Assembly (NCBI GenBank): GCA_947623805.1 | Contig: CANQHZ010000025.1 | Coordinates: 1 to 43,681 of the forward strand | Direction of reading: 5' to 3' | DNA: 43,681 nucleotides | Source of the DNA: an uncultured Lachnospiraceae bacterium | GTDB lineage: Bacteria; Bacillota; Clostridia; Lachnospirales; Lachnospiraceae | Part shown: positions 23,638 through 24,960 of the stretch, piece after piece | Numbering within the stretch: the first letter of the stretch is position 1 | Layout: each line of letters opens with the position of its first letter | Program-made: the position numbers and the translations under genes | The notes under the pieces: model-generated | What the model was told of the DNA's origin: nothing | The model's database searches: none | The model's input: the letters and a program-made list of their open reading frames with translations, nothing else

Positions 23638-23704
23638 ATAAAATAATTTTGGCAGAAGCCCATTTGGATAAATTCGAAAAAAAATAAAAAAGGAGTTGAC
23701 AATT

Positions 23705-23827
23705 ATGATAAATAAAAATAATGTTAGCAGAGCAGAGCAGAGCAGAGCAGAGCAGAGCAGAGCAGAGCAGAGCAGAGCAGAGCAGAGCAGAGCAGAGCAG
23801 AGCAGATATTTTTCGTTTTGTCTATAA
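23705..23827 (+). other. Short frame from the only well-placed start before the glycosyltransferase (OFF phase)
   Basis: ATG 23705 has AGGAG (23691-23695) 9 nt upstream. It reads 7 codons (MINKNNV), runs through the pentanucleotide tract as repeating Ser-Arg-Ala-Glu-Gln and stops at TAA 23825-23827, giving 40 residues. It is one base out of step with the glycosyltransferase frame that begins beyond the tract. Confidence 0.75.
23726..23805. repeat. (AGCAG)16 pentanucleotide tandem repeat
   Basis: Sixteen perfect copies of AGCAG with no variants, followed by a lone A. The tract is free of stops in all three forward frames and encodes cycling Ser-Arg-Ala-Glu-Gln in each. Perfect long tracts like this change length by replication slippage. 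By codon arithmetic, 15 or 18 copies would join ATG 23705 to the glycosyltransferase frame; 16 (present) and 17 do not. Confidence 0.95.
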
Positions 23828-24960
23828 TTAATATCATAATAATGGTACTTATGATATTAAATTCAAAAGGTAAAATTATTGATGCAATGACATATGGCGA
23901 GAGTAATTTTTGGGATTTTTGGGCGCATATTGAGCGATTGTTGACAAGAGATAATGTTTATACAGATGCAGATGCAATATTTCCGCCGCTTTTGTATTGC
24001 TTCTTAAAATTATTTTCAACGCCTCTTTCTTATAAGCTAAGTTTAGGCATGACAATTACTGAAATAGCGACATCTGGATTTGGCATATTGGTTTTGGCAG
24101 TATATCTTTTATTTTTTTATGCGTTATTTACGTTAGCTGTAAGTTTATTATATAAAACAACAGATAATGTTAAAAAGAATGTTTTAACATTTCTTCTTCT
24201 TTTTTCTTATCCATTTTGGGGATGTGCATTTGAGCGTGGTAATCCTGTAATATATGCTATGGTATTTTTGATGTTGGGAATAGCGCTTAAAGATTCTAAA
24301 AATGTTATTTTCAGAGAATTGTCACTTATATGTGTCGCAGTTTCAGCCGGTTTTAAATTATATCCGGCTTTATTTGGATTTATTTGGATTGCCGAGAAAA
24401 GGTATAAAGAGGCATTTAGAATGATAATATACGGATTAATTGCATTTTTTGTTCCGTTTATATTTGTAGGCAGTTTTTCAAGTTATGTAGAGACTTTTTT
24501 TATGTATTTGAATAAAAATATATATTCTAAAACTTCTGTATGGGGAAGCTGTTTTTTGATATTTGGAGATAATGAATATACTCAAATTTTGTGCAGAGTA
24601 ATAATTATTATGTTGATTTTATGGGGGCTTTTATGTCTGCTCATAAATGGGGTTAATTGGAAAACAATTGCTTTATTTACGTCAACCCAAACGATAATCA
24701 TACCTGAAAGTTATGTTTATACTTATGTTTTCATAGCTATACCATTGATTATGTTTTTTAATGAAAACGGAAAACGTAGAATAGATAATGTATATGCTGT
24801 ATTGTTTGCATTAGTGTTTACAATTCCGCCGTTTTTGCAGATTCAAAGTGCAGTTTTAATCGGAATATATATAAGTTGGGTTCTTTTGCTGTTTTTGATA
24901 TCGATTGATGAATTGATAGTTCTAAGAAAAAAGATAGCTGAGAACAGATTAAAAAGATGA
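23818..24960 (+). CDS. Membrane glycosyltransferase (GT87/DUF2029-like), phase-variable candidate
   Basis: A 380-residue polytopic membrane protein from TTG 23818, with about 9-10 predicted helices. [17 protein letters not shown] and [20 protein letters not shown] match the conserved segments of GT87/DUF2029 polyprenyl-phosphate-dependent mannosyltransferases, so it probably adds a sugar to a surface glycan or lipid at the outer membrane face. There is no ribosome site before TTG 23818 or ATG 23842; the frame is open back to 23728. The strong start at 23705 is out of frame because of the repeat tract, so this allele looks OFF. Its base composition is more AT-rich than the neighbours, suggesting acquisition. 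No other glycan genes lie nearby. Confidence 0.8.

What the first reader, a model, noticed from the sequence alone, without database searches (positions are those of the whole stretch)
23691..24960. Phase-variable membrane glycosyltransferase controlled by an (AGCAG)16 tract, present in the OFF state
The sequence shows one good start (AGGAG, 9 nt, ATG 23705), then 16 perfect AGCAG units, then a 380-residue GT87-like frame that is one base out of step with that ATG. The tract has no stop in any frame and always encodes Ser-Arg-Ala-Glu-Gln. With 15 units the ATG reads straight into the first membrane helix ([14 protein letters not shown]); 18 also works; 16 and 17 end early. A pentanucleotide switch inside the coding start of a surface glycosyltransferase is familiar in Gram-negative mucosal bacteria but, to my knowledge, unusual in Clostridia.
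Basis: partly seen in the sequence, partly recalled or inferred. Interest (0 to 1): 0.88.

Follow-up and report, generated by a model that had tools for sequence, protein, structure and literature searches.

The report
Repeat-length switch on a sugar-transferase gene
A membrane sugar-transferase gene, recently inserted in this genome, starts with sixteen copies of a five-letter repeat that most likely switches the gene on and off when the copy number slips; the same repeat is already known to do this in two streptococci.

Summary
In detail: (AGCAG)16 at 23726-23806, AAGGAG plus ATG 23705, and a GT87-like frame out of phase with that ATG. On/off switching by slippage is the best reading; it is inferred, not shown, for this strain. 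The gene is a ~1.34-kb low-GC insertion; two same-genus genomes carry the empty site.

The repeat is not new. AGCAG = GAGCA = GCAGA, the unit of proven phase variation in Streptococcus suis modS (PMC8125046) and S. gallolyticus pil1 (PMC3894217). It occurs in 8 of 397 family genomes, in two layouts. Layout A (the window): the tract opens a gene, often Acyl_transf_3 or a DNA methylase. Layout B: leader ORF, tract, strong terminator (29 of 39 loci, 2.7 expected), mostly then a secreted-protein gene: the pil1-type attenuator.

Unexplained, perhaps new: a TTGACA-17-TATAAT promoter overlaps the ribosome site, its start point predicted inside the repeat (83 of 117 loci, 8.0 expected). In the window only the -35 box is good.

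The parts
23651..24988 (.). Inserted unit of about 1.34 kb (ends good to some 20 bases) that holds the tract and the glycosyltransferase gene
   Evidence: L214 (G033) matches window 22401-23650 (96.9%) and 24989-26500 (94.0%) back to back; L215 (G035) matches 22401-23650 (94.6%) and 24990-25171 (86.9%) back to back; 30.9% GC against 43.8% for the window.
23690..23695 (+). AAGGAG, Shine-Dalgarno-like, 9 nt before ATG 23705; it abuts the TTGACA box
   Evidence: Sequence
23696..23701 (+). TTGACA, perfect -35-like box
   Evidence: Sequence; TTGAC lies within 50 nt upstream of 83 of 117 AGCAG tracts, 6.3 expected
23705..23725 (+). ATG and six more codons (MINKNNV) of the predicted reading frame that enters the tract
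23719..23724 (+). TAATGT, weak -10-like hexamer (3 of 6) 17 nt after TTGACA
   Evidence: the generic scan did not list it
23721..23723 (+). second ATG just before the tract, in another frame, no visible ribosome site
23726..23806 (+). (AGCAG)16 plus one A; stop-free in all frames, encodes cyclic Ser-Arg-Ala-Glu-Gln
23806..24960 (+). GT87-like membrane glycosyltransferase frame past the tract (384 codons and stop); internal possible starts TTG 23818 and ATG 23842; first hydrophobic stretch begins at the first residue after the tract
   Evidence: Pfam GT87 PF09594, E 2.4e-9, 37.7 bits against cut-off 25; no NCBIfam match
22492..23637 (+). histidine kinase gene, 67 nt upstream of ATG 23705, same strand
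   Evidence: HisKA and HATPase_c; orthologue at the empty site
25092..25385 (+). 97-aa gene downstream of the insertion, present at the empty site

Best explanation
A recently acquired GT87-like membrane glycosyltransferase gene opens with an (AGCAG)n tract. Slipped-strand mispairing changes n; because the unit is 5 bases, each step shifts the frame between ATG 23705 and the enzyme. One residue class of n modulo 3 joins them (ON, with a Ser-Arg-Ala-Glu-Gln tail on the cytoplasmic side of the first helix, inferred); the other two end the peptide soon after the tract (OFF). The assembled genome, with 16 units, is OFF for that start. Shown: anatomy, frames, GT87 similarity, insertion with empty sites, membership in a widespread class of AGCAG tracts. 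Inferred: slippage in this strain, use of ATG 23705, surface-glycan role, benefit to the cell.
For: Tract and frames. AGCAG enriched over same-composition pentamers. In 34 of 138 tracts the frame stays open 120 or more codons; these proteins include Acyl_transf_3 in 8, DNA methylase families, GT87, LicD, the usual kinds of phase-variable gene (recalled). In several Acyl_transf_3 proteins the domain follows the tract with no nearby start codon (L092 first at residue 41, L138 at 37), so translation must start before the tract. A ribosome site plus start codon open to the tract is enriched (43 representatives: loose 36, expected 8.0; strict 18, expected 1.3). Same prophage locus with 10, 9 and 24 units. 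Same pentamer proven to switch expression by frame in S. suis modS (ON only at 21 or 18 units by Western blot) and in S. gallolyticus pil1 leader (start-codon mutant, unit-number variants).
Against: No unit-number variation seen for this locus. Among 18 tract-opened genes with a ribosome site, only 2 are in the ON frame and 16 OFF (P 0.033 if one in three is expected, 0.059 for 2 of 16 when three rows of one prophage locus count once); this could mean OFF is favoured or that some starts are misassigned. Before that count I dropped 10 of 34 rows by judgement and 6 more had no ribosome-site start. No relative of this glycosyltransferase was found in 37 other genomes of the genus or by the motif-based GTDB scan, so a conserved start cannot be compared. 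No structure could be predicted.
Confidence: 0.72

Rival explanations
1. The enzyme starts after the tract (TTG 23818 or ATG 23842), so unit number does not matter for its frame; the tract is 5' leader.
For: Both codons are in frame and keep most of the first hydrophobic stretch or what follows. A promoter-like pair would put the transcript start inside the tract in many relatives.
Against: No Shine-Dalgarno sequence before either codon except the AGCAG units themselves, one mismatch from AGGAG. In tract-opened acyltransferase genes a later start would remove part of the domain. The window's -10 hexamer is weak (3 of 6).
Confidence: 0.13
2. A recently inserted gene that is dead or dying: the frame is broken and the tract is only neutral slippage.
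For: The insertion is recent (empty sites with flanks 87-97% identical), low in GC, and found in 1 of 38 genomes of the genus; the assembled state is OFF.
Against: The 384-codon frame is intact with no stop; a perfect 16-unit tract beside a good ribosome site matches the layout of the wider class.
Confidence: 0.1
3. Leader-peptide attenuator of the S. gallolyticus pil1 type: tract length sets whether a ribosome covers a terminator before the next gene.
For: Same pentamer; this layout is common among relatives (29 of 39 promoter-bearing short-frame loci have a terminator of -14 kcal/mol or better, 2.7 expected).
Against: The window is open for 384 codons past the tract and no terminator-like site follows it on the + strand; 0 of 17 promoter-bearing long-frame loci have such a terminator (2.0 expected).
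Confidence: 0.03
4. Assembly error or contamination created the tract or its length.
For: The genome is a 229-contig draft; short-read assemblers can miscount repeats.
Against: The tract (81 bases) is shorter than a usual short read and is perfect; the same kind of tract recurs in independent genomes and in long contigs.
Confidence: 0.02

Closest known systems
[quoted passage not shown]
   Same: Same pentamer (GAGCA is AGCAG in another register); [quoted passage not shown] frame change switches the protein; proven by Western blot and methylome.
   Different: modS is a methyltransferase in a streptococcus. In its relative in S. danieliae (L090) the sequence before the tract reads as coding, so the tract seems to lie inside the gene, not at its very start.
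Streptococcus gallolyticus pil1 and pil3, GCAGA(n) leader-peptide attenuators (PMC3894217, passages and Discussion read)
   Same: Same pentamer; leader start codon just before the tract is needed; unit number modulo 3 sets expression; surface structure.
   Different: There the tract is in a short leader ORF before a terminator; in the window it opens the enzyme gene and no terminator follows. Many relatives found here (layout B) do match pil1.
Classical SSR contingency loci of Haemophilus and Neisseria (listings only; otherwise recalled)
   Same: Frame-shifting repeat at the start of a surface-glycan gene.
   Different: Different units, Gram-negative hosts.
GT87 glycosyltransferases (Pfam PF09594)
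   Same: Significant match over most of the profile (28-210 of 237).
   Different: No close relative found in the genus; substrate unknown.

Membership tests
Frame-shifting SSR contingency gene (modS-like) | perfect tandem tract whose unit is not a multiple of 3, between start codon and enzyme | tested here: met
Frame-shifting SSR contingency gene (modS-like) | unit number varies at the same locus | not testable with these tools
   No second strain or reads for the window; shown only for one prophage locus of the class, 10, 9 and 24 units
Frame-shifting SSR contingency gene (modS-like) | protein made only at some unit numbers | not testable with these tools
   Needs an experiment
Frame-shifting SSR contingency gene (modS-like) | intact reading frame after the tract | tested here: met
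   384 codons, no stop inside
pil1-type phase-variable attenuator | short leader ORF holding the tract | tested here: not met
   One frame past the tract is 384 codons long
pil1-type phase-variable attenuator | strong terminator after the tract | tested here: not met
   One search lists none on the + strand in 22300-25300; one search finds none of -14 kcal/mol or better for the window
GT87 | Pfam score over the curated cut-off | tested here: met
   37.7 bits, cut-off 25
GT87 | GT-C fold with catalytic acidic residue in the first outer loop | not tested
   Structure prediction unavailable; a DFW motif after the first hydrophobic stretch fits by recall only
TRAP (MtrB) RNA-binding site | TRAP protein encoded in genomes with the tract | tested here: not met
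   PF02081 in 0 of 8 tract-bearing family genomes; the control Bacillus subtilis rings
sigma-A promoter overlapping the ribosome site | TTGACA with a -10 hexamer 16-18 nt on | tested here: inconclusive
   -35 perfect, -10 only 3 of 6 in the window, though strong in the class

The most novel reading that the evidence does not exclude
AGCAG switches form a portable cassette in which a sigma-A promoter overlaps the ribosome site and start codon, so that its own transcript begins inside the repeat and cannot carry that start codon, while a second promoter or the upstream gene supplies the translatable mRNA. The overlapping promoter would then serve the repeat itself, for example by transcribing the purine-rich tract and keeping it unstable (an R-loop mutator), or would act as a phase-independent second promoter. 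The window would be a worn member.
Probability: 0.17. Interest if true: 0.72.

Novelty: new member of a known kind. Interest (0 to 1): 0.5.

Why it matters
If the reading holds, a common anaerobic family switches cell-surface enzymes and large secreted proteins by one shared five-base repeat, and its members can be found by pattern search and read as ON or OFF straight from a genome. That widens a mechanism proven in two streptococci to many anaerobes, and the overlapping promoter makes a direct, testable question out of how such tracts stay unstable.

Tried and rejected
TRAP-site idea ((GAGCA)n resembles a TRAP target, recalled): rejected, no TRAP gene in 8 of 8 genomes tested. Known RNA family: no meaningful match around the tract and none at gathering score near it in 14 sources. 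Transcript start inside the tract as the sole start for layout A: disfavoured, because acyltransferase domains follow the tract with no start codon and because ribosome-site starts are enriched before it. My first view that the ribosome site was spurious: given up after and the pil1 paper. Reading S. suis modS as a member of the promoter cassette because its published primer ends in CTTGACAGCC: given up; the S. danieliae relative shows coding sequence before the tract, and the primer was not found in viral contigs. Plasmid and phage searches for other copies of three flanks gave nothing. A motif scan of GTDB with the enzyme gave no relative. An independent class-wide sample added one new tract (G650; 3 of 311 genomes in all, 0 of the 300 outside the family), too few to repeat the statistics; that one locus, L190, is layout B but has TTTACA in place of TTGACA.

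Expected values come from dinucleotide shuffles, except in the spacer test, which used plain shuffles.

Full report
OBSERVATION. The tract is real and as described: 16 AGCAG units and one more A at 23726-23806, the only run of 4 or more units in the genome. ATG 23705 has AAGGAG 9 nt before it. The frame past the tract is open for 384 codons and matches Pfam GT87 (E 2.4e-9, 37.7 bits, cut-off 25); NCBIfam has no match. With 16 units ATG 23705 gives a 40-residue peptide; 15 or 18 units join it to the enzyme; a second ATG at 23721 would be joined by 14 or 17.

THE GENE IS AN INSERTION. Two same-genus genomes, G033 and G035, have the histidine-kinase gene and the 97-aa gene next to each other; window 23651-24988 is missing there (flanks 96.9% and 94.0% in G033; 94.6% and 86.9% in G035, with a further piece at 93.1%). 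A third, G034, has contig ends in this place and is not informative. The unit is 30.9% GC (window 43.8%), third codon positions 23.7% GC against 42.5% for the kinase. The enzyme has no match in the other 37 genus genomes. So promoter-like box, ribosome site, tract and enzyme came in together.

THE TRACT BELONGS TO A CLASS. Six or more units occur in 8 of 397 genomes of the family, none with the reversed unit, and in 3 of 311 genomes of a class-wide draw, two of them already counted, 0 of 300 outside the family. One family genome (G293) shares its locus with a record titled Lachnospiraceae, so the window is probably from that family; its own name was not given.

TWO LAYOUTS. Of 138 tracts examined, 34 have an open frame of 120 codons or more past the tract (layout A). 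Their Pfam matches are Acyl_transf_3 in 8 of 34, N6_N4_Mtase in 2, and one each of EcoRI methylase, C5 methylase, LicD, AMP-binding, DUF1796, nitroreductase and GT87 (the window); three are phage-like PAPS_reduct and three are one prophage locus with a weak sigma-region-4 match; a few GC-rich rows are not credible genes. In several acyltransferases the domain begins straight after the tract with no early start codon, so the start must lie before it. Layout B: short frames. Among 39 such loci with the TTGAC box, 29 have a terminator of -14 kcal/mol or better 40-150 nt on (2.7 expected; 5 of 16 without the box, 1.3 expected; layout A with the box 0 of 17, 2.0 expected), and 27 of 39 have a signal-peptide-like ORF within 700 nt (113 of 810 random positions in the same loci). 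In 26 of those 29, one frame stops within 20 nt of the tract and another reaches the terminator (15.6 with sd 2.4 for shuffled spacers). This is what the published pil1 attenuator needs, so I read layout B as pil1-type switches in many anaerobes. Exceptions exist: 12 of 39 have no such ORF, L147 has lost the leader ATG and L117 has ACG in its place.

LENGTH VARIATION. Three prophage records share flanks (next to the tract 97.2% over 107 nt or 96.0% over 600 nt upstream; 93-99% downstream) but have 10, 9 and 24 units. Nothing like this could be got for the window.

STATE. With a ribosome-site start chosen by rule, 2 layout-A genes are ON and 16 OFF; 6 have no such start and 10 of the 34 rows were dropped beforehand by judgement. 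L111 among the OFF has a gap of N in its tract. The shortage of ON (P 0.033, or 0.059 counting the prophage locus once) may mean OFF is favoured, as S. gallolyticus cells are mostly low for Pil1, or that some starts are wrong.

THE OVERLAPPING PROMOTER. 83 of 117 distinct upstream regions have 9 or more of 12 promoter positions close to the tract (8.0 expected) and 83 have TTGAC in the last 50 nt (6.3 expected). In 41 representatives the -10 match at 16-18 nt is far above shuffles (34 with 4 or more of 6, 7.9 expected; z 11.7), with the single best spacing at 17. The CTGCT strand has TTGAC in 6 of 86 and other pentamer tracts in 1 of 12; that one, L189, stands before what looks like a DNA methylase start. 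Ordinary genes of the same loci have TTGAC within 50 nt of the start in 11 of 250, layout-A genes in 10 of 16. The start point would fall in the first repeat units, so this transcript would lack the ribosome site. Yet ribosome sites with open starts are also enriched, and just after TTGAC the xTG codons are ATG 42, TTG 6, GTG 4, CTG 0; 19 of 20 representative leaders are open to the tract (13.4 expected). A separate very good promoter lies further upstream in 24 of 80 loci (0.7 expected; three of the 24 are one prophage locus), as mapped for pil1. So translation from before the tract is feasible, and the role of the overlapping promoter is open. In the window the -35 is perfect, the -10 poor.

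CONCLUSION. In the searches I made I saw no description of the repeat in Lachnospiraceae or of the overlapping promoter; the library lacks most subscription papers and I read only passages of two papers and one Discussion.

Noticed in passing
window 2664-2909 (+): T-box leader (110.3 bits) before the ORFs that include pheT at 4017-6437.
   Followed up: no
window 9435-9600 (-): TwoAYGGAY RNA, 99.7 bits; function unknown.
   Followed up: no
L050, L059, L066, L071, L082, L097, L103, L110, L116, L117, L132, L154, L160, L190: A conserved leader of about 150 bases after the tract, ending in a strong hairpin and T-run; it recurs before different genes and up to three times within 2 kb in L154. No Rfam match in the seven of these loci searched (L071, L097, L116, L117, L132, L154, L160).
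   Followed up: partly
L117 6037-6113: c-di-GMP-I riboswitch aptamer upstream of a layout-B tract and surface-protein gene: a second-messenger input and a slippage switch may sit in one leader.
   Followed up: no
L189 (viral contig, GGAAC x9): A different pentamer tract with TTGACA-16-TACAAT before it and a sequence after it that looks like the start of a DNA methylase: the layout may not be tied to AGCAG.
   Followed up: partly
L073 (Lactococcus chungangensis): 66 AGCAG units, the longest tract seen, with a strong hairpin terminator after it.
   Followed up: no
window 20999-28750: Response regulator, kinase, then (after the insertion) a 97-aa gene, ABC ATPase and FtsX-type permease: the insertion splits a two-component and ABC-transporter neighbourhood.
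   Followed up: partly
window 30098-30184 and 30769-30841: Two short tandem repeats (38 and 36 bases, about 2 copies).
   Followed up: no
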